Positions 10,701 to 33,223 of a stretch of DNA of 64,000 nucleotides are shown one piece after another. The notes beneath the pieces were generated by a model, which saw only the letters and a program-made list of their open reading frames with translations, ran no database searches and was not told the origin of the DNA. Every line of letters starts with the position of its first letter. The first letter of the stretch is position 1. The DNA comes from Phlebopus portentosus (Eukaryota > Basidiomycota > Agaricomycetes > Boletales > Boletinellaceae), in contig JAYXKI010000001.1 in the NCBI GenBank assembly GCA_037892935.1, forward strand, positions 2,046,001 through 2,110,000, written 5' to 3'. Made by a program: the position numbers and the translations under genes.

Positions 10701-10921
10701 GACAAGGAATTACTAGCGATTGTCAAGGCCTTGAGCAACTGGAGGCACCACTTGGAAGGAGCTAAACATGAGATTCGAGTAGTCAGCGATCAATCTAACC
10801 TTCGATATTTCATGGGAGCTAGGAAGCTAAGTGGCCGCCAAGCAAGATGGACGACATTTCTCAGCAGATTTCGATTTTGAATCGAGTATTAACCTAGAAC
10901 CAAGAATTCAAGAGCGGACGC
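7782..10921 (+). pseudogene. pol: pol remnant (PR-RT-RNaseH), copy B
   Basis: Collinear with the pol of copies A and C. It has at least nine stops relative to copy C, including TAG at 8091 (TGG to TAG), TGA at about 8910, 9396, 9953, 10,371, 10,486 and 10,878, and TAA near 10,545. Most correspond to CGA in copy C. The RT box YLDD survives near 10,135, but a glycine of the FGLMNAP-type motif is changed to arginine (FRLMNAP). It is non-functional and more decayed than copy A. Confidence 0.9.
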
Positions 10922-12552
10922 TGAATCTCCTGTGGATGTTCTGATGCCGGACAGGGAGTGTATAGTTTGAGGGGCTGCCCTAGAATACCTTCAAGCAGTC
11001 AGCAGAGAATTACACCCGAGCTAAGGGCATGAAGGAATGGAGGGAAATAGGGATATTCAATGGAAGGGCTTGGTGAGAACTGGGAAATATGAGGGAAGCG
11101 CTCGAGAAAGAATTCCGAGGGTAGGCTTCTCCCAAGATCGACGGTGGTGGTGCAAAGGCTAAATCGACTCTCCGGCTCAGCTGCGAGCTCTGGACTAAAG
11201 CTGACTAACCCAAGGCACAAGAACTAAACTAACTAAGCTACGCTAGTCGAACCACCAACCCGAATGTGACTAATTGACTGTGCTAACACACTGGTAGCGA
11301 CTGCAGTTGATCTCACTCGTAGTCTTAAGTGTCGGAATGTGGCGTAACGGTTTGAAATGCAATACGATGGACGAAGGACAATTGCTGAGTGTGTCAAAAT
11401 GTGATGCGAGGGATGGAGGTGCAAAACAATGACGGAAGGGGATCGAGAGAATCGAAGGATATGTGTGGGATGATGGAACCAACCGTTTCTAATCGAAATG
11501 ATGTGGAACAACGCTGGGCAATGACTTGAGGAAGTGGGGAGATGAATGTCAGGAGGAAAGGGGTGATATGGTGTCCTTTCCCGACGACAATGGAGAGGAG
11601 AAGGTGTTGCGAGACCAAATGCGAGTGGCACGCAAAGTAACTGGGTTACAAGCGAAACTGGGCGAAACGGTTCGAAACACGTAAGGGGGTTTTGATTTGG
11701 GTGAGAGAAGATAGAGAAGCCTTTATACGATGACGGCGAACTATATAAATGCACAAATGGCTCTACTGCAAAGAGAGATCACCGATTGACTGTACAGAAT
11801 ATGAAATGTCATATATTAGACTATAGAGACAAGAGAGTCCACTACGAACAAGTAGACTAGAGGTCGAGGGACTTTGAGATGATGTGAGAACTGCAAGCTA
11901 AGCTCCCACTCAGCTCCCACTAAGCTCCCTACTCTACTACGAGAGTCGTGCTATATTTATACTAAACGTCCAAGACTGAGCCTCCTAGCAGTCAGAGAAC
12001 CTACATCATAAAGAAAAGGGGAACGCATATCACTATCTACAAAGGAGAGGAGCACATATGAATGGTTTAAGGGACACATAAGTCAAAAGAAACAATACTG
12101 AGCATGTCTGGAATGAGAGCATAATGGATTAAAGGGGACGCATATAGAAAGGTCAGAATATGTGCGAAACCTTCAGAACCGGATCTCTTTGAGCAGAACA
12201 AAGCGGAACTCGGGGAAACAACTCAGAAGGGCTCTGGCTAGCCTGACAAAGTAAGTCCGCGATGTTTGACAAAAGAGAGGGACTGAGGACAAGGTTGCAG
12301 GGTCAAATCTCTTTGTCTGGAATGCGGATCCGGGATCCGGAGACTTGTGATCGACGCGTGCAAACTCAATGCCGTGATTCTCCCGCCTTGATGGCCAATC
12401 AAAGAATGGTGCACGTGCCATCTGGACTATGGCGTTCTTGCTAAGTCCACTCGTTCGAGCAAAACCAGTCGAAACCGAGCAAAACCAGTCGGAACACCAC
12501 GGAACTGGTTGTAACAACTCCGTATGTTCCCAAGCTTCAGACTTACTCTTCA
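10922..12552 (-). repeat. Solo LTR of family 3 inserted in copy B
   Basis: A 1631-bp repeat, TGAATCTCC at the left end and ACTCTTCA at the right, closely matching 29,756-31,374. It splits copy B pol, and the pol sequence resumes on the far side. A 4-bp direct repeat ACGC flanks it (10,918-10,921 and 12,553-12,556). No internal element sequence is attached, so it is a solo LTR left by LTR-LTR recombination. Orientation is inferred from the copy at 29,756, whose internal region lies to the right and whose gag-pol would read leftwards. Confidence 0.88.
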
Positions 12553-13144: not shown

Positions 13145-13264
13145 TCACCCCTCTCTCAAGGTTGGGCGTCCCGACCAACCACATAATCCTTCTGACGATG
13201 TAAACCTATACAGTGCTCGCATGCTTTGTCGAGGTATTGTTAACTTTCGTGGAGCTCCAGGATG
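13145..13264 (-). other. 3' end of the F-type internal region, with the left copy of an 88-bp duplication
   Basis: On the - strand this is the extreme end of the pol reading region and the 3' untranslated stretch up to the polypurine tract. Bases 13,177-13,264 repeat, with about three differences, the 88 bp at 24,746-24,834 on the other side of element E. Confidence 0.75.
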
Positions 13265-14607
13265 TGAAACTCCTGTGCACTGTCTGATAGCTGAGGAGTG
13301 TCACAGTTCTTGGGGGCTGTTCGGTAAGATTAAAACGAGTGGGAAAGAGAAGGGTGATCTTTGGGGGGAAAACTAGAGAAGGGCTGATGCGTCGATCTGG
13401 GTTCCGGAGCAGTTCCGGAAGGGATGGAGGAGAAATGGGATTGAAGGCGGCTGGATGTATGCGAGGGGGGGGATTGGATTAAAGGAGATAGGCGAAGAAG
13501 CAAGGCGGGAGAAGTCGAAGCAAAGGGGGATCGGCGGTGGCGGTGCGAAGGTAATCGATGTCCTCACAGGTAATCCCTCGATGGATTCGAACCCTGAAGG
13601 CGGAAGACGATGAGACGAAGCTTAGAGAAGGACTTCCCCTAAGCGCTGACGATTCGAAGGTGATCCTTTCGAGGATCCGACACGATATAACGGGTTACGA
13701 CGAGTTACGACGGGTTTCGGTGGGTTACGAAGCGAAACGGAGCGATACGACGCGGAACGAAGCGATACGCAAGGGACTCAAGTGAGACCTCGCGTAGGGG
13801 CGTAGGGAGGAGAGATGAGGGTCTCCGACTTCAACACGGGTTGAACTGATCACACTGGGCTCGGGTACGACTGCAGAGCAGGAGACTCGAGGCGTATGAG
13901 ACAGAACTATCGTGTATTTGTGGGAGATAGAGTCGAGGAGAGTACAGGAAGAGTCGAATTGGTCTCGACTGTAGCTAAAGTGGGTTCAAGCCCGAGCTAA
14001 ACTGTTTTCTGCTAAAACTCTCCGGGCTAAAACTGGGCTCCTACTACAAGTTGCTCGCCTATTTATAACTTTGTCCGAACCTGAGCCATCGGAGCGTCAG
14101 GGAGCATAACGAAAGGAAATCGGAAGTGAAAATCATAAGGGAACACACGGGAACAAAGTACGAGGTGAGCATATCTGGAAGGTGGCGAGATAATGACCAT
14201 AGAGCATAATACGAAATGTGAGCGCACACGGAATAATGAGCATAAGAATCATAAGGAACAAAACAAAATATGAACGCATATGGGACTCAAAAGGGGAAAA
14301 GCCGGAGTGCGTCGCGTCGGGTCGAAACTTGGGAGGTGTCGGGGGCCGATTGCGGATCCTTCAATTTACCTCTCGTGCCTGGGTTTAGTAAGACGAGCTA
14401 GCTAAGTCAGCCTTTGTAAGTTTTCGACTGGGTGGCTCGAGCGTCCGAAGGTTCTTCCTACGCAGCGGTCGAGTGCGAGAGGCTACAGTAGTCCGTTCCA
14501 CTTCGAATCGAATCGATCCGCACCGAGTTCCGCTGTTACGATGCGGATCACCGCGGAACACGTGTCACGTGCGCGATCTCGGACCTAGCGTGTCGATGCT
14601 TCTTACA
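13265..14607 (-). repeat. 3' LTR of element E
   Basis: A 1343-bp LTR. On the + strand it starts TGAAACTCC and ends CTTCTTACA. It lies directly upstream, on the + strand, of the antisense gene, so any promoter for that gene should sit here. TATTTATA at 14,060-14,067 reads as TATAAATA on the - strand. Confidence 0.92.
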
Positions 14608-14741
14608 TCTCCCGGTTTCTTGAAATCGTGACTGTCCGCAGTCACACTCCCAATAGGGTTAGACTCGGCGTCTCTAGATTCTTGACGCGTAAAACGCGGT
14701 TCGCGACGCGTTCCGTTCATCTATCCTCTCTTCTCTCCGTC

Positions 14742-16662
14742 ATGTCCCAACAACAGCAACAACAACAGCGACAACAGCAACAACCGCAACAGCAGCAACA
14801 ACAGCCGCTGTTCGACGAGATCCCTGTCTCAGCGGAGGGCTTCGTGTTCAGCGATACGTGGCTTTACGGTGTCGGAAACCAGGTCCAGGTCATCGAGCGT
14901 TTGCACGAGGACGTGGATCAGAGACGGTTCGTGAGGATGACCGTTGCGCAGTCCGTTGAGAGGGCGGAGGAAATGCGTGAGATCCAGGTGCGCTTTCTTT
15001 TCTGTCTTCATCTATTCTCTTCGTTCCGTTCCGACTTCCTGAACTTCATAGACTGCGAGAAAGAGACTCGAGGACCTTCGGCCCGAGTGGGTGCCCATCG
15101 ATTTGATGTGGCCGCCGTATGCCGCGCGTTTCTGGGCGGAAAGCGTGGTTGCGCTTGCGGATCGTTGCGCAACCCTCAACATCAACTGCGACCAGCTCGA
15201 TGCGCTCAAGGCTTCGTACCTCGAGGACGAAAAGCGTTCGAAGCCGGACACCGAAGTCTACGTTCAGCAATGGCGCGCGGGTTTGACCGGTCTAGAAGGG
15301 GCGATCGGTCGTCACCGCGATCTGCTACGGCCACTGGTTGGCCATTTCGACGAAAGGAAGGACGAGCTGGAGAACACGGTCATGAAGATCGATCTGGACC
15401 AGGTGAGTGCTCATTCTCGCTTCTTCTTCAAATCTTGCTAACTGTTGAACTTCTAGCTATGGCGGATGTTTTGGGTCGGTCGTCGTCCTCCCGGCACGGA
15501 GATTGACGACGTCTGGACCGAATTCGGGTGGCTCGCTTGGGCGGAGATCCGGGGAATCCTCCTCTCAGCGCCGCTGAAGAGTCACGTCCACGAGGCCCTG
15601 CGGTGCTGGACTGCGTATGAGGAGAAGTGCTGCCCGTGCTCGGTCAAAGCCGCAGACGCCCTCGTTGCGCTGCGTTCCGACGCGCATCTCGGCGGATCGG
15701 GCCCCTTTTCGTCGGGTATATCCGAATTGACCGAGTCTGCCCTCAGGACGCTGCTGGGTCGTCAAGACTTGAGTCAGGTGGAGCGGGAGTCCGTCATCAG
15801 CGAGCTGGAAGATCGTGCGGACCGAGTTTCGTACTTGAGCGAGCTGGAGAAGATGGCAAGCGCGGTCAGGGTTCCGTCGCCGTCTTCGGATCGCGAGAGA
15901 GATGAGAGGCCCACGAAGCGGCCTCGGATTGTCGATTATTCGAGCGACGAGGAGTCGGTAGAGGGGAACTGCAACAACAGCAGCAGCAACATTCCTTCTG
16001 CTGCCAACGGTTTCTCTTCTGGGGGTCCGGCTGGAGATGACGACTTTGGGGCTTTTGACGAAGCGCCCCTCTTTCTTCCGGACGGTGCTGTCAGCGAGAG
16101 CAACAGCAGCAACAGCAATCCTCCGGCTGCGAGCGAGTCTCCGAGTGCAGAACGAATGGAAGAGGATGAGGGAAGCCAAGGCGATGGCGGGGACGGCAGC
16201 AGCAGTAGCAGCAGCAGCAGCAATTCGTCTGCTGGTGGCTGGGTCGTGCATGATGAGGGGTGTGAGAGGTGCGCGAGGACAGGCCGGGTCTGTGAGGGTT
16301 TCCCTGGGCAGGCCTGTGATTACTGCCGCACGAAGGCCAGGCGGCGATGCGAGCTGGCTACGCACGGGAGGGCTGCGCGTCGCCTGCGGAACGAGCAGGT
16401 GGAACGCGAGACGCGCGAAGCTCGTCAGCGCGCAACGGCGCAGGTGCTGAGGATGCCGGTTGCGCCTGTCCTCGAGGTGAGTGACATCGAGGAGTTGGTC
16501 GCCGGGACGGACGAGAGCGCCGTCCATTTCCGGATGGCGGCCTTGGAGAGGCGCGCGCGCGTGTTGTTCCGCGCTGCGGATCAACTGCGCAACCTAGCGG
16601 AGGAGATGCTGGCCGAGACCAGTGCGCTAGGAAGGGTGGTAAGGGGTGAGGAGGAAGAGTAA
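14742..16662 (+). CDS. Antisense accessory gene of element E: three-exon protein with a Zn2Cys6 motif
   Basis: This gene lies between the integrase end and the 3' LTR, on the strand opposite gag-pol. Exons are 14,742-14,987, 15,052-15,402 and 15,457-16,662. The introns are 64 and 54 nt (GTGCGC and GTGAGT donors, CATAG and TCTAG acceptors, CTAAC branch in the second), all in phase 0. The ATG at 14,742 starts a polyglutamine N-terminus. The product is about 600 residues: a predicted helical middle, a Ser/Asp/Glu-rich linker, then cysteines 468, 471, 478, 486, 489 and 497 spaced CX2CX6CX7CX2CX7C, which fits the fungal Zn2Cys6 binuclear cluster, followed by a basic segment and a helical tail. The family usually binds DNA; a role here in transcriptional control is inference. 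It is fully open in this copy. Confidence 0.82.
14988..15051 (+). other. Intron 1 of the antisense gene
   Basis: The donor follows CAG with GTGCGC and the acceptor is CTTCATAG, pyrimidine-rich throughout. Removal joins two phase-0 exons, whereas the unspliced frame closes soon after. Confidence 0.78.
15403..15456 (+). other. Intron 2 of the antisense gene
   Basis: Donor CAG/GTGAGT, branch-like GCTAAC, acceptor ACTTCTAG. It contains an in-frame stop (TAA) if unspliced. Confidence 0.8.
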
Positions 16663-17236
16663 GGAGTAAGAGGAGTGAGGAGAGGGGGTAGAGTGCGTCA
16701 AAAACGACGCTTTTCGTCTAGTGTCCCCTCATGGGACGAATAAAAACAAAGAAAAAGAAGAAAAAGAAAAAAATAATTTGAACTTTTGTATATATAGTTT
16801 TTGTGCGTTTTTGAATGTTATGAATTTTTGTTTGCGGTTTTGACGTTTGGGGTGAAGGTAAATGAGGCGAGGTCGAAGAATAATGGAAGAATGAGGATTG
16901 AGATATGAGAAAATGAGAGATTAGAGAAAATAAGCGGTGATTATTGAGTCGAAAGGACTGAGAGAAAAATAAGCTAGTTGCGCTGTTTTGCGCAGCGCTA
17001 CGCCGGGTTGCGATTCGCAACTGAGCGCATGAAGGTGAACACGCGGTTGAACGCGTATCTCGGTTTGCGCGAACACTTTTCCGAGGGTCTAAATGCGGTT
17101 GAGCGCGAATAATTCGAAGGAAGGAAAAATTGAGAGGAAAATCGGGAGAGGAATGAAATGAAACGAATAATCGAAAGGATCTAATAGAAGAAGAATGTCA
17201 GTGGTTTGCATGGAAGGTATCAGAACTGAATGGTGT
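16663..17236. other. Intergenic spacer between the antisense gene and the pol 3' end (element E)
   Basis: An A/G-rich + strand with no convincing ORF. It separates two convergent genes, the antisense gene reading right and gag-pol reading left, and so must hold both 3' untranslated regions. I see no clear hairpin terminator, as expected for polymerase II genes. Confidence 0.6.
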
Positions 17237-18304
17237 TTATAAGTTGAGGTTTTGAGATTCCGACTGGGCGTCGGAAACGTCGTCTTCTTCTGGTTCGATT
17301 GGGGGGTTGGCGTCGTCCTCGAGTTCGTCATCTGCTGCGTTTACGAGTTTAGTAACGGGTACAGAGAGATTCGAACGAGGAAAGTAAGGAATCAGGCGAA
17401 ACGCAGCTACTCGGATCTTCGAGACTGATCCGTCGAGTTCCGCAATGACATATGAACCGGCCTTTGTTTTGCGTACTACCACGTAGGGTCCTAGGTATCG
17501 GGGCTTCGTCTTGCGATTAAGTTCCATTTTGATGCGCGTATTTCGCAACAATACGAGTCGTCCTGGCTGGAAATCGTAGTCTTTGATTTTGGCCTTGTTG
17601 ATCTCTTCGAATTGTCGCGCGTATGCATGCCGGGCATCGGAAACTAATCTGGCGATTCGATCCAGTTCCTCAGGACGCTTCTGGAGCTGCTTCGCGCGAG
17701 TTGCGATGAGTTCCGCAGTCGGAACAGGCGTATCGACCGGGGGGGCTAAGTACGTGGCTTCGGCGAGGTCGAAAGGTAGAATAGGCTCTACTCCGTGTAC
17801 CATGTAATACGGGGACATTCCGGTCGCCTTCTGGATGGTGATTCTTTCTGCCCAAAATACTGAGTAAGCTTGGTCGCTCCATCGTTTGTCATTACCGTCT
17901 ACAGCCTTTATCAGGGCTTCCTGCACATCGTAGTGGCGTCTTTCTACAATTCCATTAGCGCGAGAGTTGTATGCTGAGATGCGTATGTGATTGATGTGAT
18001 ATCGATTCTTGAGGTAATCGAGTGCTGCGATGAACGGTTTCCCATTATCTGTTACGAGCTCGGGACAAGCGCCGTATCTGCAAAGGAGGTCTTGGAAAAT
18101 GAACTGGGCTATCGCTTGCCGGTTTCTTCGCGCAAGAGTCGAAATTCGGGGTAACCGGATAAAGCGCATCGGGCTTGTACGATGTACCGGTATCCTCCAG
18201 ACTTCGGCATTACCTTGGTGTCGATGTGTATGCGCTGGAAAATCGATGGTATTGTTGGTACGACCGGGGGAATTAGAATGTTCTTCGTCTGGCGAACTTG
18301 GCAC
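17237..18304 (-). CDS. pol: Integrase core and C-terminal part of element E pol
   Basis: This is the downstream segment of the E polyprotein, in a frame shifted by one base from the preceding RT segment near 18,120. It contains the second catalytic aspartate (V-T-D-N-G, about residue 110) and the glutamate (G-I-V-E-R-R) of the D,D,E integrase. A basic C-terminal domain follows, with a G-P-Y-V-V motif and an acidic tail. No chromodomain was recognised, unlike families 1 and 4. Residues before about 60 are out-of-frame sequence and not part of the protein. Confidence 0.85.
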   Translation of the reverse strand: MPSSPDEEHSNSPGRTNNTIDFPAHTHRHQGNAEVWRIPVHRTSPMRFIRLPRISTLARRNRQAIAQFIFQDLLCRYGACPELVTDNGKPFIAALDYLKNRYHINHIRISAYNSRANGIVERRHYDVQEALIKAVDGNDKRWSDQAYSVFWAERITIQKATGMSPYYMVHGVEPILPFDLAEATYLAPPVDTPVPTAELIATRAKQLQKRPEELDRIARLVSDARHAYARQFEEINKAKIKDYDFQPGRLVLLRNTRIKMELNRKTKPRYLGPYVVVRKTKAGSYVIAELDGSVSKIRVAAFRLIPYFPRSNLSVPVTKLVNAADDELEDDANPPIEPEEDDVSDAQSESQNLNL

Positions 18305-20676
18305 TCATGACAGGTGCGCACGTAGTATTTGACGTCTGGACCGAGGGTAGGCCACCAAAATCGTTCCAGGAGTCGAATTCGAACAGAGTATACTCCCTTG
18401 TGGCCTAGATCGTCATGCGCTTGCTTTACGAGGTTCCATCTGCGTTCCGGTTCGATTACGACTTGGTGTCGTCCGTTCCGCACCTTCTTCCACAAACGTC
18501 CGTCTCTAGCGAAGAAATTTGCCGCGTACCTGATCAGCGCTGCATAGCCACGATCGTCTAACTGATCCGGTCGCTTCTGGCCGATCAAGAAGCTCTTGAC
18601 GTGATCCAAGCGAGCATCTTTCGGGTTAGCTCTCTCGGAGCTGGGAAACAAGGTCAACGCGATGTCAGTCATCTTCGGGAAGTCAGAGCTGCCGTTTCCC
18701 TTCCGGCGTTTACTGTTCGAGCCCTCGAGGTATCCTACTGATCCGAGAGTTGCTTGCGCATTTCCAGGGCTCGATGGGAGTCGTTTCGTTTGGTTGCGCG
18801 CACGTAAGTCTGCGCAATACGTCGTAACTGGGTTTTCGATGTAGAATCCATACGTGTCGTCTATCCACTCTTCGTATCCTTTGTCCGGAGGTGGATCTTC
18901 GGGTGCCGGGGGTCGTCGAGAAAGTCCGTCGGTGCATTTGAAGTTTGCCGCCGGGATGTGGCGAATCTCGAAGTCGAATAGAAGTATCCCGGCGATCCAG
19001 CGGTTGATCGTAGCGTTTGGTTGTAAGTCCGGGTTGTTAATCATGCCTTTGATGTATGCTGCGTCCATTTCTACGACAAGCTTGCGCACTCCGATGAGAT
19101 ATAGTCGCATGGCGTGTAACGTACGAAATAGTCCGTAAAGTTCGATTTTCGGTTGGGAGTATGTTGCTTGCGTGGCATTCCAGTTTATGGAACCGAAGCG
19201 ATTAATCCTTCTTCGTCCATCTACGTGTTCTTGACCCAAATACCATCCTACTCCGATAATCGACGAATCCACCGCAAGTACAACTTCGAGTTCCGATTGA
19301 TAGTCTATTGCGCATAGAGCTGGACACCTAATGACCGCTTCTTTCAACTCGTTCATTGATTCCTGTTCTTCGTCTGTCCAATCGAAAATGTTGTTCTTCC
19401 GAGTGAGTCGATTGAGGGGGCGTGCTATCTTGGCGAAATCCTTAATGAAAATTCGCAGGACTCCCACTGTTCCGAGGAATCCTTTGACTTCGGTTACGGA
19501 TCGGCATGGCGGCCAGTCACTGACCTTCTGGACTTTCGATTCGTCTGGCTCTCGTCCATAATATGTCAGTTTGTGTCCGAGAAATACGATTGACTCAACG
19601 CCGATCTCCATTTTCTTTCCTGAGTACGTCCCTCCCACTGCCTTGACTCGCTGCAAAATTCGATTTACGTCGCATATATGCTCGTAAATAAATCGCCTAA
19701 TCCCTGGATTCTCTGGCAGGGTTTCGTAAGAGCCATCCGGGAGTTCGTAGCGCGTTTTGGGACCTAATCCGGGCGAATCGTCTGCATACGGATCGGTACA
19801 GTGCGGAATCTCGTCTTGTAGGATGAAAGCGACGTCATTGTGCATAATCTGAAGGGAATTCGTGTATCCCATCGGGAGAACCGTCATTCTGAACGTTCCC
19901 AAGGGAGTCTGAAATGTCGTGAGATCTCGAGAGCGTTCGTCTAGAACTCGCTGGTCAAAAGCCACATAGAAATCGAGGCTCGAATAACAACTTCGTCCGC
20001 CGCAACGCTCCGCAATGGTCTCTATATTCGGCGGAACGGCTGAGTCTCGGACGGAAACGCCATTCATGTCTTGCAGGTCGAGTATAAATCGAAGGGAGAC
20101 TCCATCTTTCTTGACTAGGCAAAACCATCGTGATCGGTACGAGGAGTTAGACGGTTCAATGGCTCCATTCTTGATTTTCTCGCGAATCAGGTTGATGGTA
20201 CGCTCGAGAATACCCGGAGGAATAGGTATGTTCTTGTGTACCCACGGTACATGCGGTACCGTCGGGATGCGAATCGGATCGAAGTATTGCGCATCGAAAC
20301 TACCCCGTTCCGCTTCCGTCCACGCTAGTGCTCCTTCCTGCAGCATAAGTAGGTTAGCCACTAGCAGCCTTTCTTCGGGCCATAAGAACTGATTCTCGTC
20401 AATCCTGAGGGCTTCAAACCGCTCCTTCGTAAGTCTGCCTATGGGCGTAAACGGTTTCGGTTTCTTTGGTATTTCGGACAGTCCTTCGAGCGGGTTCGGA
20501 TGCCTCCTTCGAACGATCCGAAATTCTTCTGGTAGTACCCCGGGGACGGGCCGTACTTTCTGAGCGACGCGTTTGTACATGAGTACCGCCGGGTCGTCGT
20601 CGTCCGGGGTCTCTAGAATACATGATCTATAAGGTCGATTTGAATAGTCAGTAGCGAAACGCATTGGGTCTTTCAT
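18109..20676 (-). CDS. pol: Reverse transcriptase, RNase H and integrase N-terminal part of element E pol
   Basis: 855 codons. The RT catalytic box reads Y-A-D-D and is followed by an unusually long insert (P-D-G-S-Y-E-T-L-P-E-N-P-G-I-R-R) before the next conserved RT block. RNase H follows (A-V-D-S-S, I-E-L-Y-G, E-M-D-A-A), then the integrase zinc finger (H-D-D-L-G-H-K-G, C-H-E-C) and the first integrase aspartate in H-I-D-T-K. The frame closes in R-E-E-T-G-K-R at 18,109, where a one-base shift leads into the integrase core. The RT insert is typical of a clade common in Agaricomycetes, by recollection of the family. Confidence 0.9.
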   Translation of the reverse strand: MKDPMRFATDYSNRPYRSCILETPDDDDPAVLMYKRVAQKVRPVPGVLPEEFRIVRRRHPNPLEGLSEIPKKPKPFTPIGRLTKERFEALRIDENQFLWPEERLLVANLLMLQEGALAWTEAERGSFDAQYFDPIRIPTVPHVPWVHKNIPIPPGILERTINLIREKIKNGAIEPSNSSYRSRWFCLVKKDGVSLRFILDLQDMNGVSVRDSAVPPNIETIAERCGGRSCYSSLDFYVAFDQRVLDERSRDLTTFQTPLGTFRMTVLPMGYTNSLQIMHNDVAFILQDEIPHCTDPYADDSPGLGPKTRYELPDGSYETLPENPGIRRFIYEHICDVNRILQRVKAVGGTYSGKKMEIGVESIVFLGHKLTYYGREPDESKVQKVSDWPPCRSVTEVKGFLGTVGVLRIFIKDFAKIARPLNRLTRKNNIFDWTDEEQESMNELKEAVIRCPALCAIDYQSELEVVLAVDSSIIGVGWYLGQEHVDGRRRINRFGSINWNATQATYSQPKIELYGLFRTLHAMRLYLIGVRKLVVEMDAAYIKGMINNPDLQPNATINRWIAGILLFDFEIRHIPAANFKCTDGLSRRPPAPEDPPPDKGYEEWIDDTYGFYIENPVTTYCADLRARNQTKRLPSSPGNAQATLGSVGYLEGSNSKRRKGNGSSDFPKMTDIALTLFPSSERANPKDARLDHVKSFLIGQKRPDQLDDRGYAALIRYAANFFARDGRLWKKVRNGRHQVVIEPERRWNLVKQAHDDLGHKGVYSVRIRLLERFWWPTLGPDVKYYVRTCHECQVRQTKNILIPPVVPTIPSIFQRIHIDTKVMPKSGGYRYIVQARCALSGYPEFRLLREETGKR

Positions 20677-20801
20677 CAGCTTCCGAAGCTGGTTACTAAA
20701 TAGAGAGGTGAAAGCGTCGGAAACATCAATAGAATAGATAGAAAACGTATTGTTGAGGCTTGAACATGAATAATCGCCTACGTCTCGCTGACGTCTTAGT
20801 A

Positions 20802-21528
20802 TCAGTTCCTCGACGTCTGCTGAAAACCCTGTTGCGCAACGTTGCGCAACACGTTCCGAATTCCAGTCGCGACCTTGCTATGTCGATTCCTGTCGTTGGG
20901 GTCTGATAGCGTTATATGCTGGTCTCCCGAGGTATAATCCTTGGTTTCGCATTCGGTTACTGCGAAGAAGGGTCGTCCGAGTAGCGCCTGAAACGGCGCC
21001 TGACGAACGACATGCACTTGCAGGGAAAGATCAATCCCGGCTATCGTAAACTTGGCGTTCGGGATTAGTCCTACGGTGGCCGACTTCGCTGTGTCCGCCA
21101 TCTCGATGGTCGTGCTCTGGTCCGGTGATAGGGGCACTTGAAGTTTTTCCCAAACGTCTTCCCTAATCAGACACACTGCTGCGCCTTGATCGAGTACGCA
21201 CTCCACTTCCATCGCGTCCTCCACTACGGCTGTAATCGTACGAAGGGGGAGAGTTGCTTCCGCGGTCACTCCCGACGTTCCGATGGACAGAATCGAGTCC
21301 TCAGGTTGTTGCGATGCGGTTCCGCACAGTTGCATGGCGTAACTCGGCGATTCGACGAGATTCACATCGGCAGCGTTATATCTCTTTGCGGTAGTGAGTT
21401 CCTTTAGTTGCTTTCGTAGTTCGGGGGCGATCGATAACAGTTCCCTTTGGCTAAGCGTAATGCTCGTGTCGAGCGTCCGAGTGAGCACGTTAGAGACAGC
21501 GTTAGAATCTTCAACGGGGACTACGTAG
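20802..21528 (-). CDS. Retropepsin region of element E
   Basis: It holds an aspartic protease-like domain: V-L-D-Q-G-A-A-V-C-L-I as the active-site strand (D-Q-G instead of D-S/T-G) and a later L-L-G-R-P-F-F motif. The frame is open upstream of 21,488 for a few codons (Y-R-Y-V-V-P) and is offset from the upstream gag frame, so a one-base break or a programmed shift lies near 21,530. The segment ends about 125 nt before the RT frame begins. Confidence 0.75.
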
Positions 21529-22678
21529 CGGTATTGGGGTTGGGGGTTCGAGGGTTTTCTAATATCATCCCGCTGCGGTGACGAACGTGAAACCGCCGGG
21601 GACTTAGGAATAGGGGTGGCGACTGCTGCGCCTTCGAAGCCCCTCTTCCCGGCGGTCCCACTTTTGTCGGAATGACTACTCCGTCGAACTTCTGCCTTTT
21701 ACCAGTCGCCGCTTTCTTCTTTGCCTCGTTGAGCAAGATTTCTAAACGTTCTACTTCGTAATCGGTCTCTTCTGTCTGATCCTCGCCGATTTCCTGGAGC
21801 ATAGCTGATGCTATCGGCTCGGCCGGGGTTTCCGGGTGCTCGGCGACTTCGATGATGTTGACTGGATGTGACGGGTTCGGCTTTAGCAAGTTGTCAATTC
21901 GCTCCATCAGGTTCCGGCCCGAAACCCTACTTGATACGAAGGCTCCGTTTGGCATGACTACTCGTCCGTTCGAGTCACGTAGACACTTTCCGGCCTGGAT
22001 ATACTCGAGTACCTTCGGGCACGACCTTATAAAGTGGCCGGGATCGCTGCAGAACGCACATCCGGGCGTGCGAGCCAATGGGGCCGGTTGCGGACCTGTT
22101 GCGATTCGAGGGCCCTGGCCTCTAGTGAGCGATTCCAGTGTTACCTGAAAACCCTTCAGCGTTTCCCAAACTTTACTCAAGTCCGTTTCTTCCTTCTTGA
22201 CGGTCATTCCATGTCCTCCCGACGACGCGCTCATCGTTGCGCTCGTTCCGCCGCTCATCGGGTCGGATCCGATCTGATCGACTGCGGATCCCGAAAGAAT
22301 GTACATAGCTGCGTTTGCTACTTTCTCGATGTCGTAGGGGTCGCCCCTCTCGTGGTCCGGGTCCTTGATTTCGAGCCTTTGCAGGATATCCTTCCTAGTC
22401 TGGCCCGAAATGCCTCGAAGAAACGCGAATTTCGAGTCGTTCTCGGTAAGTTTGTTGCTGGTAACTAGATACCTGGCTCTGCGTAGGAACTCGCGATGAT
22501 AAGTGCCGAATTCATCTCTGGTGTGAATACCTTTTTCGGCCCATTCGGCGATGAACTGCTCCAATTCGCCCCTAGAGTATCTCTTGCCGTCTGCCAAACT
22601 TGGATAAAGCTCTTGACGGCCGTTTTGAAATCTCCGACGCTCGCAGGGGCGGCAGAAACTTCGGGGAGGGTCTCCCAT
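21521..22678 (-). CDS. gag: gag C-terminal half with zinc knuckle, element E
   Basis: It contains capsid-like sequence followed by a CCHC knuckle (C-A-F-C-S-D-P-G-H-F-I-R-S-C). Its first residues overlap, in another frame, the gag N-terminal ORF; the true protein crosses frames near 22,610, which implies a one-base indel in this copy. The C-terminal quarter is Pro/Ser-rich. Confidence 0.8.
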   Translation of the reverse strand: MGDPPRSFCRPCERRRFQNGRQELYPSLADGKRYSRGELEQFIAEWAEKGIHTRDEFGTYHREFLRRARYLVTSNKLTENDSKFAFLRGISGQTRKDILQRLEIKDPDHERGDPYDIEKVANAAMYILSGSAVDQIGSDPMSGGTSATMSASSGGHGMTVKKEETDLSKVWETLKGFQVTLESLTRGQGPRIATGPQPAPLARTPGCAFCSDPGHFIRSCPKVLEYIQAGKCLRDSNGRVVMPNGAFVSSRVSGRNLMERIDNLLKPNPSHPVNIIEVAEHPETPAEPIASAMLQEIGEDQTEETDYEVERLEILLNEAKKKAATGKRQKFDGVVIPTKVGPPGRGASKAQQSPPLFLSPRRFHVRHRSGMILENPRTPNPNTAT

Positions 22679-23403
22679 ACTTCTGCAACGTCAGTCTTCG
22701 CATAGTACAGGTACCCACGTCTGATGGTAGTCGACGCATCCCAGTTGGAATCTATTGCGATCGCATCCACGTCGTCGAAGAAGCGGAACAGTTCCTTCGG
22801 ATCGGAACCGTCGAATACTGGTGCTCTCTTGTCACCTCGAAGAGGTGGTCTAACTGCAGCCATCTGGTTCGATATACGCTGCAACTGCTGATAATTGGTC
22901 TGAAGTTGGTTAAGGATCTGCAGGTTACTTCCCAGTCCTTGGAGGTGGTGAGCGAGAGTTAATCCGCTTGGTTGCGACTGTTGCGCAAGCGGATCGACTT
23001 GGATCGCTTGATTGGAGGTTTGAGGCTGTCTGAGCCTAGCGGGGTCTGGGTAATCGAGTCGAACAGTGATATCCTCAGGCGACGAGGATTCTTGCTCGGA
23101 GAATTCGGTAGGTAGATCGGTTTCTTGGAAACTAAAAGGAGACGATTCGGCCGACGGCTCGAACGATGGTAGGGTACTGGACTCGGTCAGAGGTGAAGGT
23201 TGAATTACTGAAGAACTTAGCGACGATGCTGTGGTGCTTCTAGCGCTTGCCCTCTGCCTAGGTGTCCGAGGTGTGACTTGGGGTAAGGCTTGGTGAACTA
23301 CGGGGATACGGGCTGATTGGCTTCGGGTAGTCCGAGTACTACCTGGAGTTTGGTTACTCGTTTTGGACGAACAGTGAATTTCCCCCCTCGCCGTGGGCTC
23401 CAC
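22465..23403 (-). CDS. gag: gag N-terminal half, element E
   Basis: Ser/Thr/Pro-rich N-terminus, a glutamine-rich helical stretch (Q-L-Q-T-N-Y-Q-Q-L-Q), then a capsid-like domain beginning with A-P-V-F-D-G-S-D-P. The ATG lies just inside the 5' LTR and overlaps the primer-binding region. The frame is lost near 22,600 and continues in the neighbouring gag ORF. Confidence 0.78.
   Translation of the reverse strand: MEPTARGEIHCSSKTSNQTPGSTRTTRSQSARIPVVHQALPQVTPRTPRQRASARSTTASSLSSSVIQPSPLTESSTLPSFEPSAESSPFSFQETDLPTEFSEQESSSPEDITVRLDYPDPARLRQPQTSNQAIQVDPLAQQSQPSGLTLAHHLQGLGSNLQILNQLQTNYQQLQRISNQMAAVRPPLRGDKRAPVFDGSDPKELFRFFDDVDAIAIDSNWDASTTIRRGYLYYAKTDVAEVWETLPEVSAAPASVGDFKTAVKSFIQVWQTARDTLGANWSSSSPNGPKKVFTPEMNSALIIASSYAEPGI
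23385..23402 (-). other. Putative primer-binding site, element E
   Basis: Reading the - strand inward from the 5' LTR edge, two bases are followed by TGGAGCCCACGGCGAGG. This begins with the TGG expected opposite a tRNA CCA end. The tRNA was not identified. Confidence 0.55.
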
Positions 23404-23404
23404 T

Positions 23405-24745
23405 TGAAACTCCTGTGCACTGTCTGATAGCTGAGGAGTGTCACAGTTCTTGGGGGCTGTTCGGTAAGATTAAAACGAGTGGGAAAGAGAAGGGTGATCT
23501 TTGGGGGGAAAACTAGAGAAGGGCTGATGCGTCGATCTGGGTTCCGGAGCAGTTCCGGAAGGGATGGAGGAGAAATGGGATTGAAGGCGGCTGGATGTAT
23601 GCGAGGGGGGGATTGGATTAAAGGAGATAGGCGAAGAAGCAAGGCGGGAGAAGTCGAAGCAAGGGGGATCGGCGGTGGCGGTGCGAAGGTAATCGATGTC
23701 CTCACAGGTAATCCCTCGATGGATTCGAACCCTGAAGGCGGAAGACGATGAGACGAAGCTTAGAGAAGGACTTCCCCTAAGCGCTGACGATTCGAAGGTG
23801 ATCCTTTCGAGGATCCGACACGATATAACGGGTTACGACGAGTTACGACGGGTTTCGGTGGGTTACGAAGCGAAACGGAGCGATACGACGCGGAACGAAG
23901 CGATACGCAAGGGACTCAAGTGAGACCTCGCGTAGGGGCGTAGGGAGGAGAGATGAGGGTCTCCGACTTCAACACGGGTTGAACTGATCACACTGGGCTC
24001 GGGTACGACTGCAGAGCAGGAGACTCGAGGCGTATGAGACAGAACTATCGTGTATTTGTGGGAGATAGAGTCGAGGAGAGTACAGGAAGAGTCGAATTGG
24101 TCTCGACTGTAGCTAAAGTGGGTTCAAGCCCGAGCTAAACTGTTTTCTGCTAAAACTCTCCGGGCTAAAACTGGGCTCCTACTACAAGTTGCTCGCCTAT
24201 TTATAACTTTGTCCGAACCTGAGCCATCGGAGCGTCAGGGAGCATAACGAAAGGAAATCGGAAGTGAAAATCATAAGGGAACACACGGGAACAAAGTACG
24301 AGGTGAGCATATCTGGAAGGTGGCGAGATAATGACCATAGAGCATAATACGAAATGTGAGCGCACACGGAATAATGAGCATAAGAATCATAAGGAACAAA
24401 ACAAAATATGAACGCATATGGGACTCAAAAGGGGAAAAGCCGGAGTGCGTCGCGTCGGGTCGAAACTTGGGAGGTGTCGGGGGCCGATTGCGGATCCTTC
24501 AATTTACCTCTCGTGCCTGGGTTTAGTAAGACGAGCTAGCTAAGTCAGCCTTTGTAAGTTTTCGACTGGGTGGCTCGAGCGTCCGAAGGTTCTTCCTACG
24601 CAGCGGTCGAGTGCGAGAGGCTACAGTAGTCCGTTCCACTTCGAATCGAATCGATCCGCACCGAGTTCCGCTGTTACGATGCGGATCACCGCGGAACACG
24701 TGTCACGTGCGCGATCTCGGACCTAGCGTGTCGATGCTTCTTACA
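23405..24745 (-). repeat. 5' LTR of element E
   Basis: 1341 bp, apparently identical to the 3' LTR except for single-base differences in a G run and an A run. TATAAATA on the - strand at 24,205-24,198 is the likely promoter element for the genomic RNA. Confidence 0.92.
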
Positions 24746-28690: not shown

Positions 28691-29755
28691 TCACACATTG
28701 ATGTTGTTGACCTCTTCGAAGGAGGATTCCTTCACTTGGCCGAGTTCCTCAAAGAGCGCCTTTCTGTCTGCTGAAACAAAGGCTGCAATGATTGCGCGTA
28801 TCGCTTTACGGCCTCGGGGGCATTCCCGGATGTAGTGGCCCACTTGGCCACATTTATAGCAAGCGCGCGTGCGACGCGCCTGATTCATCATCACCTCCAT
28901 TGGCTGACCTAGGCCTCCGTATGTTACTCCAGTCGTATCATGACGATCTTGGGCGGGAGGGATGAAAGGGCGAGTCGCTTGTTGAGGTGGCACCAGATGT
29001 CTTAGTGGCGGTGGCGCTGGTTTCATCACTGTTGAGCCGACCGTCTTCCTCCTACGCTCGGCCATTAGATCCCTGATCTGACGCTCAACCCTGTCGACCT
29101 TGACCGCAGCCTTCTTGAATTCCTCATACGTTGTCGGCTCATTGGGTAGGCGCATGATACCTTCAACCACCTTTGGGTTTAGTGCTCGTTTCAAGCGACT
29201 CATCAGCCATTCATCATGAGCCTTGGTGGCCAGTCCAGCGTCAACTCGACAGATGTCAAACTTATTGAAGAACTCATCGGTGTTGAGGTCCCCTTGGTAC
29301 ATCGCGTTGAGCCTTTCGAAGGCCTTCTGGGAACGAGCCGGATCATCAAATGAGGTGTCAAGTTTCTTTAAGAAAGCATCCCAAGTGTCCTTGAATGCTA
29401 TCCTACCCTGTTCGTCAATTGCGCCACTCATGTAGCTTTCCGCCCAGCTCGCAGCAGTACCGCTCTTCATATACGACAGAGCGAACATGATCTTTGCTTT
29501 GCTCGTCCTAAACTCTGACTCCGACGCATAAACATACAGGTGCAGCTCTCGTTTGAAGTCGACATATCCGTGTTCACCATCGAAGTCTCGGGGCTTGGCG
29601 ACATGGACCTTGTTCGTCTTCGATCCTTGGCTCGTTCCTTCTCCTGCCGCTTGGAGTGCTAGCGCGATTGCCGTAGCAAGGTCCATTATTGACTCTTTCG
29701 ACAATGACATCTCTTGTTCTTCTTCTTCGTCTTCTTCCTCTTCGTCTGTTGGTAC
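28691..29755 (-). pseudogene. gag: Family 4 gag, 5'-truncated (element F)
   Basis: Capsid-like Gag (F-D-G-E-H-G-Y-V-D-F-K-R-E-L) with the zinc knuckle C-Y-K-C-G-Q-V-G-H-Y-I-R-E-C. The N-terminal portion is missing because a family 3 LTR begins at 29,756; the homologous gag at 33,224-34,729 shows how much is lost. TGA at 28,693-28,691 stands where that homologue has CGA, so Gag ends before the frameshift site. Confidence 0.88.
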
Positions 29756-31374
29756 GATGATACTCCTGTGGACGTTCTGATGCCGGACAGGGAGTGTATA
29801 GTTCGAGGGGCTGCCCTAGAATACCTTCAAACAGTCAGCAGAGAATTACACCCGTGCTAAGGGCACGAAGGAGTGGAGGGAAAAAGGGATAGACAATGGA
29901 AGGGTTTGGTGAGAACCGGGGATATGAGGGAAGCGCTCGAGGAGGAATTCCGAGAGTGAACTTCTTCCGAGATCGACGGTGGCGGTGCGAAGGCTAAATC
30001 GACTCTCCGGCTCAGCTGCGAGCTCTGGACTAAAGCCGACTAACCCAAGGCACAAGAACTAAATTAACTAAGCTACGCTAGTCGAACCACCAACCCGAAC
30101 GTGACTAATCGACTGTGCTAACACACTGGTAAGCGACTGTAGCCGATCTCACTCGTAGTCTAAAGTGTCGGAACGCAGCGTAACGATTCGAAACGCGATT
30201 CGATGGACGAAGGACAATTGCTGAGTGTGTCGAAATGTGATGCGAGGGATGGAGGTGCGAAATGATGACGGAAGGGGACTGAGAGAATTGAAGGATATGT
30301 GTGGGACGATGGAACCGACCGTTTCCGATCGAAACGATGCGGAATAGCACCGGGCTGGTCTTGAGGAAGCGGAGAGTGGAAAGTCAAGAGGAAAGGGGTG
30401 ATATGGTGTCCTTTCCCAACGACAATGGAAAGGAGAAGGTGTTGCGAGACCAAATGCGAGCGGCACGCGGAGTAACTGAGTTACGAGCAAAACCGGGCGA
30501 AACGGTTCGGAACACGTAAGGAGGTTTCGGTTCGGGTGAGAGAAATAAGAGGAGCCTTTGTACGATCACAGCGAACTATACGAACGTACGAACGGCTCTG
30601 CTGCGAAGAGAGATCACCGATCGACTGTACAGAACACGAAATATCATATATTAGACTATAGAGACGAGAGAGTCCACTATGAACAAGTAGACTAGAGGTC
30701 GAGAGGCTTTGAGACGATGTCAGAACTGTAAGCTAAGCTCCCACTCAGCTCCGACTAAGCTGTCCTTCTACTACGAGAGTCGTGCTATATTTATACTAAT
30801 CGTCCAAGACTGAGCCTCCCAGCGGTCAGAGAACCTATGTCATAAAGAAAAGGGAACGCATATCGCTATCTACAAAGGAGAGGAGCGCATAGGAATGGTT
30901 TAAGGGACACATAGGTCAAAAGAAACAATACTAAGCATGTCTGGAACGAGAGCATAATGGATTAAAGGGGATGCATATAGAAAGGTCAGAATATGTGCGG
31001 AACCTTCGGAACCGGGTCTCTTTGAGCGGAACGAAGCGGAACTCGGGGAAACGACTCGGAAGGGCTCTGGCTAGCCTGACAAAGTAAGTCTGCGATGTTT
31101 AACAAAGGAGAGGGACTGAGGACGAGGTTGCAGGGTCAAATCTCTTTGTCTGGAATGCGGATCCGAGGTCCGGAGACTTGTGATCGACGCGTGCAAACTC
31201 GATGCCGTGATTCTCCCGTCTTGATGGCCGATCAAAGAACGGTGCACGTGCCATCTGGACTATGGCGTTCTTGCTAAGTCTACTCGTTCGAGCGAAACCA
31301 GTCGGAACACTGCGGAACTGGTCGTAACGACTCCGTACGTTCCCAAGCTTCAGACTTACTCTTCATCTCCCGGG
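29756..31374 (-). repeat. Family 3 LTR (3' LTR of H)
   Basis: About 1619 bp; the + strand starts TGATACTCC and ends ACTCTTCA, matching the solo LTR at 10,922-12,552. TATATTTATA at 30,786-30,795 reads as a TATA box on either strand. It shares terminal motifs (TGAWWCTCCTGTG at the left end) with the LTR of family 2. Confidence 0.9.
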
Positions 31375-31493
31375 TTCATGAAATAGTGACCGTCCGCGGT
31401 CACTCCCATCTCAATCCGACGCGTGGGAGTTTTGAAGCATAACGCGTCGCGTCCAAATTTTCTTCCGCTGTCATCTCTTCTTCATTCTCCAAT

Positions 31494-33216
31494 ATGTTCA
31501 CTTCCGAAGAAATCGTCGCGCTCTTGGGACCCATCAACTCCGATGACGACTGGAAGGCAGCGGTCGCGAAATTCGAGGCAGACGTCGCCTTGGCCAGGTC
31601 GGCAATGGATGAACTAGACCATGGCGTCACGACGGTAATTCTGCCGGATAAGACAAAACCGGTCGAATGGATCGCGCCTACAGGTTCGATGACGGTTCGG
31701 TGGTTGACGAATCTGGTGATGGAATCTTTGATGGATGGGTGGAAGGCAACCACGGTGCATGAACCACGCACTCTAATCAAGAATTTTTGTTAACGAAATT
31801 CGACAGGCACGGAAGGAAGCGTTGGAGCAAGTCCGTCCCAAAGGAACGAAAGAAGTCTGGTCGGAGACGGCGTACTCCAACTACTGCGACACGGATGCTC
31901 TCCTACGGACGCTGTACTACGATCGACGGGAATTTTACGCCAGGATGGAGACCAAACGACGAGCTTTCTTCCGCAGACGCAGGGTTCCATTCCATCCTGC
32001 CTCGTTCGATTCAATTCGTGGGTTCTTCTTGGGCGAATCGTTCCCTCCAATGTTCCCGAAACCGCGCCCTGACATCGAAAAGGCTCTCGAGAACGTGAGA
32101 ATGGAGAGCTCCAAGTTCCAACAAACGGCGAGGTTCACCGGCAACACGGACTACACGCGAGACGAAGCTGTCCGGAGTCACGTAGGTACTTCTTCTTGTC
32201 TATCATTTCCATCTAATCCTTCCTACAGCAAGCGTTCGAATATTGGGAGGATATCGAGCAACGACACCTTTGTGCAGGGCACATCCTTCGCATCGACAGG
32301 GTGAAATTGAGAACGGTCCGGCTCCTCTGGGAATACTACGGCTATTCCATCCTTCGTCGTCGGCTCTATCAACTCGTTCGTGCTCAGGAATCCGAAACGC
32401 AACAACAACAACAGCAACAACAACAATCCCAACAAGTGCTGTCTGAACCTTTCTCTCAACCGCAACAACAACAGCAGCAACAACCAATGCTGCCTGAACC
32501 ATTTCCTCCGCAACAACAACAACAATAGCGGTACTGCTGCTGTTCCGCGTGAAACTGTCGAAACGCAAGCGAGACGCGTTTCTCCGGCACGACGAGCGTC
32601 GTCTCAACCTGAGGCTGGTCCTTCTAGGATTCCGGCTAATGGTGGTGGTTCTGGAGGTGACGACAACGATAATGACGACGACGACGACGACGACGACGAT
32701 GATGGTGACGAACGATTGGGCGATGGGCGCGTTCGTCATCGGGTTCCGTGCGACCAGTGCCAGAAGCGTGGCCGTGATTGCGTGGGTCTTCCGCAGAGGA
32801 CCTGCGCTCCGTGCTTGAAGCAGGCGAAGGGCTGTAGTCTAGCCACGAAGGGCAGGGCTGTAGCCGCAAAGCGTAAGGCAGCTCGGGAGGCACGCGATCG
32901 GGAAGCAAAACGCCGGAAAGTCACGGCTCTGGCGGCCAGATCTGTGGGTGGTCGCATCGAGCATGAGGCTCTGCAGCGGGAGGTCGGGGAATCCGAGCTG
33001 CAGTTCGTGCTGGTGCGGATGGATCACTGGGACAAGGTCCTGTCCCGGATGCTGAACGAATTCAGCGTCCTCGTGGCGCAGGCGCACGCGGATCGTCGTC
33101 TGCTGCTCGAGTTGGCTGGGGTGAAGACGGGGGAAGGTGAAGACGAGGAAGAGGAAGATAGAGGGGAAGTGGAGAGGGTTCGTCAGTCGAAGGGGAAAGG
33201 TAGGGCTCGGGAATAG
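31494..33216 (+). pseudogene. Antisense accessory gene of family 3: three exons, Zn2Cys6 motif, one frame break
   Basis: Exon 1 is 31,494-31,754, exon 2 is 31,807-32,181 and exon 3 starts at 32,229; the introns are 52 and 47 nt and both junctions are phase 0. The second exon begins A-R-K-E-A-L-E-Q-V-R-P, aligning with A-R-K-R-L-E-D-L-R-P at the same place in the element E gene. Exon 3 carries CAA repeats and is broken by a one-base shift in or after them (TAG at about 32,526; the correct frame continues to 33,216). The C-terminal half has an acidic run and the motif CX2CX6CX7CX2CX6C (C-D-Q-C ... C-A-P-C), an exact fit to a fungal Zn2Cys6 cluster, then a basic stretch. The polyglutamine lies mid-protein here but N-terminal in E. 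Confidence 0.75.
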
Positions 33217-33223
33217 AGTATAA

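What the first reader, a model, noticed from the sequence alone, without database searches (positions are those of the whole stretch)
14742..16662. Retrotransposon carrying an antisense, intron-containing Zn2Cys6 gene
In element E the gene lies between integrase and the 3' LTR but on the strand opposite gag-pol. It has two good introns (64 and 54 nt, phase 0), a 600-residue product and a six-cysteine motif that fits the fungal Zn2Cys6 DNA-binding cluster. Introns survive retrotransposition only if they are antisense to the genomic RNA, so their presence supports genuine antisense transcription. An LTR retroelement encoding its own transcription-factor-like protein could regulate its LTR or host genes. 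Antisense ORFs are known in some plant Ty3 elements and retroviruses; I do not know of this arrangement with a Zn2Cys6 protein in fungi.
Basis: partly seen in the sequence, partly recalled or inferred. Interest (0 to 1): 0.88.

Follow-up and report, generated by a model that had tools for sequence, protein, structure and literature searches.

The report
Intron-bearing antisense gene in fungal retrotransposons
A lineage of jumping genes in what is probably a wood-decay mushroom carries, on its back strand, an intron-containing gene for a probable DNA-binding protein, kept in two element families and seen in related species, so the element may encode its own regulator.

Summary
On the + strand at 14742-16662, between the integrase end of a minus-strand Ty3-type element (E) and its 3' LTR, lies a three-exon gene (introns of 64 and 54 nt, phase 0) for 600 aa with a CX2CX6CX7CX2CX7C cluster. 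It is not a one-off. A second family (G; in part at 31366-33216) has the same architecture. The pol proteins are 73% identical, the antisense proteins only 26% over the C-terminus. 87 of 94 counted E/G pol matches have the antisense domain downstream; 0 of 32 of a sister lineage do. Substitutions show purifying selection, strongly in G, partly in E. All ten named homologues found are Sanghuangporus. Two shared cis-elements were not in the finding: a palindrome (GTGACYGTCCGCRGTCAC) with a pair of ACGCGT boxes upstream of the ATG, and 10-bp-phased CGDAAC arrays in both LTRs. I read it as a self-encoded DNA-binding regulator of the element, perhaps anti-silencing. Expression, splicing, zinc binding and DNA binding are untested; Pfam Zn_clus is below cut-off. 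Antisense genes in Ty3 elements, one of them fungal (Boty brtn), are known, so this is a new variant.

The parts
14742..14987 (+). exon 1 of the antisense gene (82 codons, Q-rich start)
   Evidence: open spliced frame; ATG kept in 19 of 19 copies
14988..15051 (+). intron 1, 64 nt, phase 0
   Evidence: GT..AG in 19 of 19 copies and 5 of 5 older copies aligned
15052..15402 (+). exon 2 (117 codons)
   Evidence: exons 1+2 carry the constraint seen in family E: shared changes 17 S, 9 N, 0 stops against 9.4, 15.3, 1.3 expected, P=0.005
15403..15456 (+). intron 2, 54 nt, phase 0, with an in-frame stop and a GCTAAC branch-point-like site
   Evidence: GT..AG in 19 of 19 copies and 4 of 4 older copies aligned; stop and GCTAAC read by eye
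15457..16662 (+). exon 3 (401 codons and stop): KRPRI NLS-like stretch (by eye), acidic and Ser/Asn-rich tracts, Zn-cluster-like motif
16222..16662 (+). C-terminal domain: CX2CX6CX7CX2CX7C (residues 468-497), LATHGRA motif, predicted long helices
14608..14645 (+). block next to the LTR (PPT side) with palindrome GTGACTGTCCGCAGTCAC (14628-14645), shared with family G (31366-31403)
   Evidence: pattern made from the two blocks: 2 matches in the window, 0 in 100 shuffles; palindrome 87 sites in genome (up to 1 mismatch) against 0 for the reversed pattern; 78 of 87 have the domain within 5 kb downstream, same strand; exact in 16 of 19 E copies
14685..14711 (+). pair of ACGCGT boxes 21 bp apart, ending 30 bp before the ATG
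   Evidence: both kept in 16 of 19 copies; family G has the pair at 31419 and 31442
13691..13770 (.). 10-bp-phased array of CGDAAC/GTTHCG in the 3' LTR (same array at 23829-23908 in the 5' LTR)
   Evidence: period test reached by 0 of 100 shuffles; motif 12 times in the LTR against mean 2.4, max 6 in 200 shuffles
13265..14607 (-). 3' LTR of element E (TG..CA on the minus strand)
   Evidence: BLAST pair, borders read by eye
23405..24745 (-). 5' LTR of element E; PBS-like TGGAGCCCACGG (minus strand) at 23391-23402
   Evidence: the tRNA was not identified
17237..23403 (-). gag-pol of element E: weak CCHC knuckle, weak DUF4100 piece, protease, RT, RNase H, integrase, in several separate frames in this copy
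31366..33216 (+). second-family (G) antisense gene, rearranged copy: linker 31366-31493 with palindrome and ACGCGT pair, ATG near 31494, Zn-cluster ORF 32380-33216
   Evidence: full gene modelled on L044
29755..31365 (-). G-type LTR with phased CGDAAC arrays

Best explanation
An accessory gene of one lineage of basidiomycete Ty3-type retrotransposons (families E and G). It is transcribed opposite to gag-pol from a promoter in the 130 bp or so between the LTR edge and the ATG, spliced of two introns, and translated into a nuclear DNA-binding protein (Q-rich and acidic tracts, NLS-like stretch, C-terminal Zn2Cys6-like cluster and helical tail). The protein most likely acts in trans on the element's own DNA: the palindrome beside its promoter (autoregulation) and/or the helically phased CGDAAC arrays in the LTRs, raising LTR transcription or keeping the element from being silenced. 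Shown: gene structure, presence through the lineage, purifying selection, the shared cis-elements. Inferred: expression, splicing, zinc and DNA binding, and the effect on the LTR.
For: Same three-exon, two phase-0-intron gene in families whose pol proteins are 73% identical. 87 of 94 counted E/G pol matches carry it downstream in antisense, 0 of 32 of a sister lineage do. Purifying selection: G copies 29 S, 16 N against 15.4, 29.6 expected (0 of 1000 draws) and 12, 6 against 6.2, 11.8 (P=0.007); E copies 0.56 of the neutral ratio for changes shared by two or more copies (P=0.018) and 1.00 for singletons, as pol does (0.42 and 0.81). Six cysteines invariant in six sequences. A S. weigelae protein of 731 aa, 81% identical to the L044 exon-3 product, reads across the same two junctions (compared by eye). 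Palindrome differing by a symmetric pair between families (T..A in E, C..G in G) and tied to the gene. ACGCGT pair in both linkers. Phased CGDAAC triplets: 719 matches (overlapping ones counted separately) against 2 for the reversed pattern; in the window all 16 same-strand 10-bp pairs fall in E or G LTRs. CpG positions of the E LTR mutate far more than others (95 distinct changes in 218 positions against 151 in 1142), as expected for a methylated element.
Against: No RNA or binding data. Pfam Zn_clus below cut-off (E 8.7 bits, G 12.2, cut-off 21), and of five fragments scanned those of P0004 and P0009 gave no Zn_clus match at all. AlphaFold models poor (mean pLDDT 43.4 and 46.6) and no fold match at E<=0.001. 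In family E exon 3 (ratio 0.84, P=0.364) and the C-terminal domain alone (3 S, 9 N against 3.7, 8.2) show no constraint. Introns are no less conserved than exons in E, and splice sites are too few to prove selection by themselves. The CGDAAC motif was picked by eye, and its cores in E are no more conserved than the rest of the LTR (6 of 36 positions against 246 of 1360). Five exact-pattern palindrome sites mix the two forms. The palindrome may serve the sense RNA or plus-strand priming instead.
Confidence: 0.55

Rival explanations
1. The protein is a nucleic-acid-binding accessory factor for a step other than transcription: nuclear entry, integration targeting or genome packaging. The palindrome folds as a hairpin next to the polypurine tract in the sense RNA and works in priming or packaging.
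For: The palindrome is 20 bp from the LTR edge; both strands of both families fold into a 7-8 bp stem (z-scores -1.8 to -3.5); the E/G difference keeps the pair, as RNA covariation would.
Against: Phased arrays in the LTRs and the ACGCGT boxes point to transcription; the palindrome is equally good as a DNA dimer site.
Confidence: 0.22
2. The spliced antisense transcript is what matters (dsRNA, siRNA or transcriptional interference); the protein is secondary.
For: Antisense RNA is proposed to regulate plant elements (PMC7264820, passages).
Against: Purifying selection acts on amino acids; introns would not be needed; the exon-3 frame is open (at least 470 aa, no stop in the match) in 27 of 67 G loci (counted by eye; the 67 include fragments) and the spliced frame in 13 of 19 E copies.
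Confidence: 0.08
3. A host gene captured as passenger, replicated with the element without serving it.
For: A locus found once in the genome (L045, C3:2959512) has the same cysteine pattern and scores 17.6 bits against Zn_clus, so a host source is plausible; introns fit capture in antisense.
Against: Kept in E and G through deep divergence, in 87 of 94 counted pol matches, under purifying selection.
Confidence: 0.07
4. A chance antisense open frame opposite a constrained sense region (shadow ORF).
For: A 339-codon minus-strand frame overlaps exon 3.
Against: The gene does not overlap the pol frames found (574 bp between); the whole spliced + frame shows constraint, the 339-codon minus frame does not reach significance (ratio 0.73, P=0.236); intron positions and phases recur in G. 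Within exon 3 alone no frame is significant, the + frame included.
Confidence: 0.02

Closest known systems
Boty-like elements of Botrytis with antisense gene brtn (Zhao et al. 2011; paper not held, known here only as cited in passages of PMC7264820, PMC8365987, PMC4227169)
   Same: Fungal LTR element with an antisense gene between pol and the 3' LTR
   Different: Boty gag-pol has a chromodomain (PMC4227169 passage); none was listed for E or G pol. Introns or a Zn-cluster in brtn are not mentioned in the passages read; the BRTN sequence was not compared
Plant antisense aORFs: Retand TRP28, Grande gene23, RIRE2, PvRetro13
   Same: Same position and strand; lineage-wide in Retand; suspected nuclear or DNA-binding role (PMC11963269 and PMC7264820, passages)
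   Different: TRP28 (PF04195) was not among the Pfam matches of the E protein or the G exon-3 frame; here two introns, a Zn-cluster-like motif, a fungal host
HTLV-1 HBZ
   Same: Antisense gene, promoter in the 3' LTR, nuclear product (passages in PMC7264820 and PMC11963269); spliced form recalled
   Different: HBZ is a bZIP protein (recalled); no sequence relation tested
VANC anti-silencing proteins of Arabidopsis VANDAL transposons (PMC5735166, abstract and outline only)
   Same: Transposon-encoded protein family whose relatives hit different targets; targets often tandem repeats of short motifs in the element's own noncoding DNA
   Different: VANDALs are DNA transposons (recalled); binding and demethylation are untested here; no sequence relation tested
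Fungal Zn2Cys6 regulators (PF00172, Gal4/Lac9/Leu3 type)
   Same: Spacing of six cysteines; weak in-register Zn_clus match in G (12.2 bits); Lac9 among 4 chance-level PDB hits of the G fragment (E=2.7)
   Different: Below Pfam cut-off; cluster at the C-terminus; in the E fragment the best match is to half of the profile

Membership tests
Ty3-type LTR retrotransposon (host element) | Paired LTRs, PBS-like site, protease-RT-RNase H-integrase order | tested here: met
   RVT_1 slightly below its cut-off in E (27.6 of 29.6 bits), above it in G (34.3); no RT tree was built
Ty3-type LTR retrotransposon (host element) | Short target-site duplication of 4-6 bp | tested here: inconclusive
   E is flanked by an imperfect direct repeat of about 88 bp instead; a test on another copy was not decisive
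[quoted passage not shown]
   87 of 94 counted E/G pol matches (131 of 378 candidates were scored)
Antisense aORF between pol and 3' LTR | Antisense transcription from its own promoter | not testable with these tools
   no RNA data
Retand TRP28 proteins | PF04195 domain | tested here: not met
   not listed for the E protein or the G exon-3 frame at E<=1; G exons 1-2 were not scanned
Zn2Cys6 (PF00172) | C-X2-C-X6-C-X5-12-C-X2-C-X6-8-C (spacing recalled) | tested here: met
Zn2Cys6 (PF00172) | Pfam gathering score | tested here: not met
   8.7 and 12.2 bits, cut-off 21; no match for the P0004 and P0009 fragments; none of the 27 PF00172 places listed for the genome is an E/G locus
Zn2Cys6 (PF00172) | Binuclear zinc cluster fold binding CGG-type sites | tested here: inconclusive
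   models too poor; binding not testable
VANC-like anti-silencing system | Repeated short motifs in the element's own noncoding DNA | tested here: met
   phased CGDAAC arrays
VANC-like anti-silencing system | Self-encoded protein binds the motif and removes methylation | not testable with these tools
   needs ChIP/EMSA and bisulfite data

The most novel reading that the evidence does not exclude
An LTR retrotransposon lineage that counters host silencing with a self-encoded, spliced, antisense Zn-cluster protein that co-evolves with its own helically phased target arrays and promoter palindrome, and whose gene is timed by host ACGCGT (G1/S-type) promoter boxes: an LTR-element counterpart of the VANC system, arisen independently.
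Probability: 0.25. Interest if true: 0.88.

Novelty: new variant of a known kind. Interest (0 to 1): 0.72.

Why it matters
Antisense genes of Ty3 elements have no established function in the reviews read in part here (PMC7264820, PMC11963269). This one has a recognisable kind of protein, introns that mark the coding strand, candidate target sites that recur in two diverged families, and a sister lineage without the gene as a natural control. That makes the question 'what do antisense retrotransposon genes do?' directly testable, and it offers a case of a retroelement that may encode its own DNA-binding regulator.

Tried and rejected
Pfam scans of the full E protein gave only a weak DUF7283 match (E=0.13); the short S. 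vaninii homologue P0002 matches DUF7283 better (E=0.00018, 21.9 bits) but below its cut-off of 27, and I did not build on it. PDB sequence searches gave chance-level hits. AlphaFold on two alignments of 11 rows gave poor models, and Foldseek found nothing at E<=0.001 in PDB or BFVD. A tRNA for the PBS was not found by pattern (2 matches against 1 control, neither convincing). Short forms of the gene (N-terminal Q tract joined to the C-terminal domain; L032-L037, L041) looked like a second gene type; in L033-L035 the C-terminal domain is out of frame with the upstream ATG or that frame holds stops, so I read them as deletion derivatives. The minus-strand 339-codon frame was rejected. Whether sister lineage J has a different antisense gene could not be tested. 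Whether J lacks the phased arrays is undecided: the listing is complete only for C1 and the start of C2; of 5 J pol matches there, 3 have no array within 10 kb and 2 do (read by eye).

Full report
Observation. The window lies in an unnamed 38.4-Mb genome whose nearest named proteins are from Sanghuangporus, so the host is probably that genus or a close relative (inference). Element E spans about 13265-24745, with LTRs at 13265-14607 and 23405-24745 (99.5% alike; borders read) and gag-pol on the minus strand. The + strand gene at 14742-16662 has three exons and two phase-0 introns and encodes 600 aa. It ends 574 bp short of the nearest pol frame, so it does not overlap pol.

Copies. The gene region gives 50 DNA matches in the genome, some of them pieces of one copy (40 of 53 candidates scored). 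In 19 near-complete copies (window plus L009-L026; the more broken L027 and L028 left out) the ATG, both GT..AG introns and the stop are kept in all 19; the spliced frame is intact in 13. Older copies that could be aligned keep the splice dinucleotides too (5 of 5 and 4 of 4). Short, internally deleted forms look like derivatives.

A second family. A protein search of the genome found, below 34 E-type rows, a large group at about 30% identity, resolved as family G with 67 loci, fragments included. The G copy in L044 has an LTR (623-2249, read by eye), an antisense gene and a single 1180-aa pol frame. Of all intron combinations allowed by my filter one gives an open gene: exons 2378-2638, 2691-3065 and 3113-4669, two phase-0 introns of 52 and 47 nt, 730 aa. 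E has codon counts 82/117/401, G 87/125/518 (stop left out). The E frame 18109-20676 (RT to integrase) is 73% identical to G pol over 848 columns, whereas the antisense proteins align with strong significance only over 246 C-terminal columns, at 26%. So the gene evolves much faster than pol while architecture and cysteines stay. A S. weigelae protein (P0009, 731 aa) reads across the same two junctions as G, a prediction by whoever annotated that genome.

Linkage to the element. One search listed 132 pol matches (131 of 378 candidates scored, so counts are lower bounds). 126 were entered in the count; six fragment rows were left out. 87 of 94 E/G matches have the antisense domain on the opposite strand within 3 kb downstream, and 0 of 32 matches of a sister lineage (50-54% identity, J) do. 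Of the seven E/G misses three or four are partial; one, C8:1547028, has an 807-aa open frame and no antisense domain within 3 kb. The gene was gained in the E/G lineage or lost outside it.

Selection. With substitutions redrawn at random in matching trinucleotide context, changes shared by two or more E copies are 32 S, 30 N, 1 stop against 23.1, 38.6, 1.4 expected (ratio 0.56, P=0.018); singletons are neutral (1.00). Pol RT-integrase gives 0.42 (P=0.002) and 0.81. Within the gene the signal is in exons 1-2 (0.30, P=0.005); exon 3 (0.84, P=0.364) and the C-terminal domain (1.36, 12 changes) show none in E (13 regions tested, no correction for their number). In G, L043 against L044 gives 29 S, 16 N (expected 15.4, 29.6; 0 of 1000 draws) and the window copy 12 S, 6 N (6.2, 11.8; P=0.007). 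Introns differ at 5 of 99 sites in the window copy but at 1 of 99 in L043, so they say little.

Protein. The cysteine pattern is C-X2-C-X6-C-X7-C-X2-C-X7-C in E and ends X6-C in G. All six cysteines and LAxxGRA are invariant in six sequences; in the 11-row set one truncated row (P0010) lacks the end. Pfam Zn_clus scores are below cut-off, and two of five fragments have no Zn_clus match. A locus found once elsewhere in the genome has the same pattern (L045) and scores 17.6 bits, so the domain may belong to a wider group that Pfam covers poorly (inference). A helix starts in each CXXC in both models, but confidence is low.

Cis-elements. Just inside the LTR edge E and G share a 38-bp block with a palindrome, GTGACTGTCCGCAGTCAC in E and GTGACCGTCCGCGGTCAC in G; a pattern written from the two finds only these two in the window and none in 100 shuffles. 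The genome has 87 palindrome sites with up to one mismatch and none of the reversed pattern; 78 of 87 have the antisense domain within 5 kb downstream on the same strand. Between palindrome and ATG both families have two ACGCGT boxes, 21 or 23 bp apart; these are 4 of the 12 in the 64-kb window, where the total is not above chance (9.8 expected). Genome-wide the paired pattern occurs at 92 sites against 17 for the reversed control; of the 50 sites listed, 21 lie at E/G linkers (matched by eye), so pairs also occur elsewhere, as host promoter elements would. ACGCGT as a G1/S box is recalled, not tested. Both LTRs, though hardly alignable, hold arrays of CGDAAC with exact 10-bp phasing. The period signal is reached by 0 of 100 shuffles in each LTR. 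The window has 143 motifs with 16, 12 and 5 same-strand pairs at 10, 20 and 30 bp and at most 2 at any other spacing from 6 to 30; all 16 ten-bp pairs lie in E or G LTRs. Triplets number 719 in the genome (overlaps counted) against 2 reversed. Copies of one LTR are not independent; the independent fact is that two diverged LTR families have them. The motif was chosen after reading the sequences, and its cores are not extra conserved within E.

Mechanism. A promoter next to the 3' LTR drives a spliced antisense mRNA for a DNA-binding protein that acts on its own element. Autoregulation through the palindrome and LTR control through the arrays are the simplest reading. Fast divergence of the protein, a symmetric change of the palindrome between families, repeated target-like motifs and strong CpG decay also fit an anti-silencing role like VANC (PMC5735166, abstract: targets often form tandem repeats). 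None of the biochemical steps is shown.

Comparison. Antisense genes between pol and the 3' LTR are known in plants (PMC11963269, PMC7264820, passages) and in Boty of Botrytis (cited there). What I did not find in print in seven searches of an open-access library (listings, with passages of five papers read) is such a gene with introns, a Zn-cluster motif or shared target arrays. Most subscription papers are not in that library, and the brtn paper itself was not read. A search for Sanghuangporus genome papers that mention retrotransposons listed nine, none opened.

Noticed in passing
window 13176-13264 and 24746-24834: Element E is flanked directly at both LTR edges by an imperfect direct repeat of about 88 bp (three differences by eye, all transitions, two of them at CpG) instead of a 4-6 bp target-site duplication. 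A search with the flank of another copy did not settle whether this is general.
   Followed up: partly
window 10919-12552: A solo G-type LTR appears to sit inside another element's pol; the homology breaks on its two sides overlap by about 4 bp.
   Followed up: partly
window 29755-34729: A G antisense gene with its LTR is joined at about 33254 to a gag of a different (Retrotrans_gag-type) family, with another gag of that family on the other side of the LTR: a chimeric or nested arrangement.
   Followed up: partly
L032-L037, L041: Copies with the middle of the antisense gene deleted, several at the same junction between CAG/CAA-rich stretches (L033-L035), suggesting repeat-mediated loss, perhaps during reverse transcription.
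   Followed up: partly
L045 (C3:2958900-2960700): A locus found once, probably a host gene, with the same six-cysteine pattern (YEIPCSRCARAGIACAGKEGRACFTCRAHRQGC), a possible relative of the source gene; a further weak match at C19:108162.
   Followed up: partly
genome G000, J lineage pol matches (e.g. C10:1537025): A sister pol lineage (32 matches, 14 listed with a 1162-aa open frame) without this antisense gene; what lies between its pol and 3' LTR is unknown.
   Followed up: no
window 56367-56791: A tandem repeat of period 81 bp with at least four units, 77-80% alike over 162-bp windows, inside a minus-strand open frame (56341-56841).
   Followed up: no
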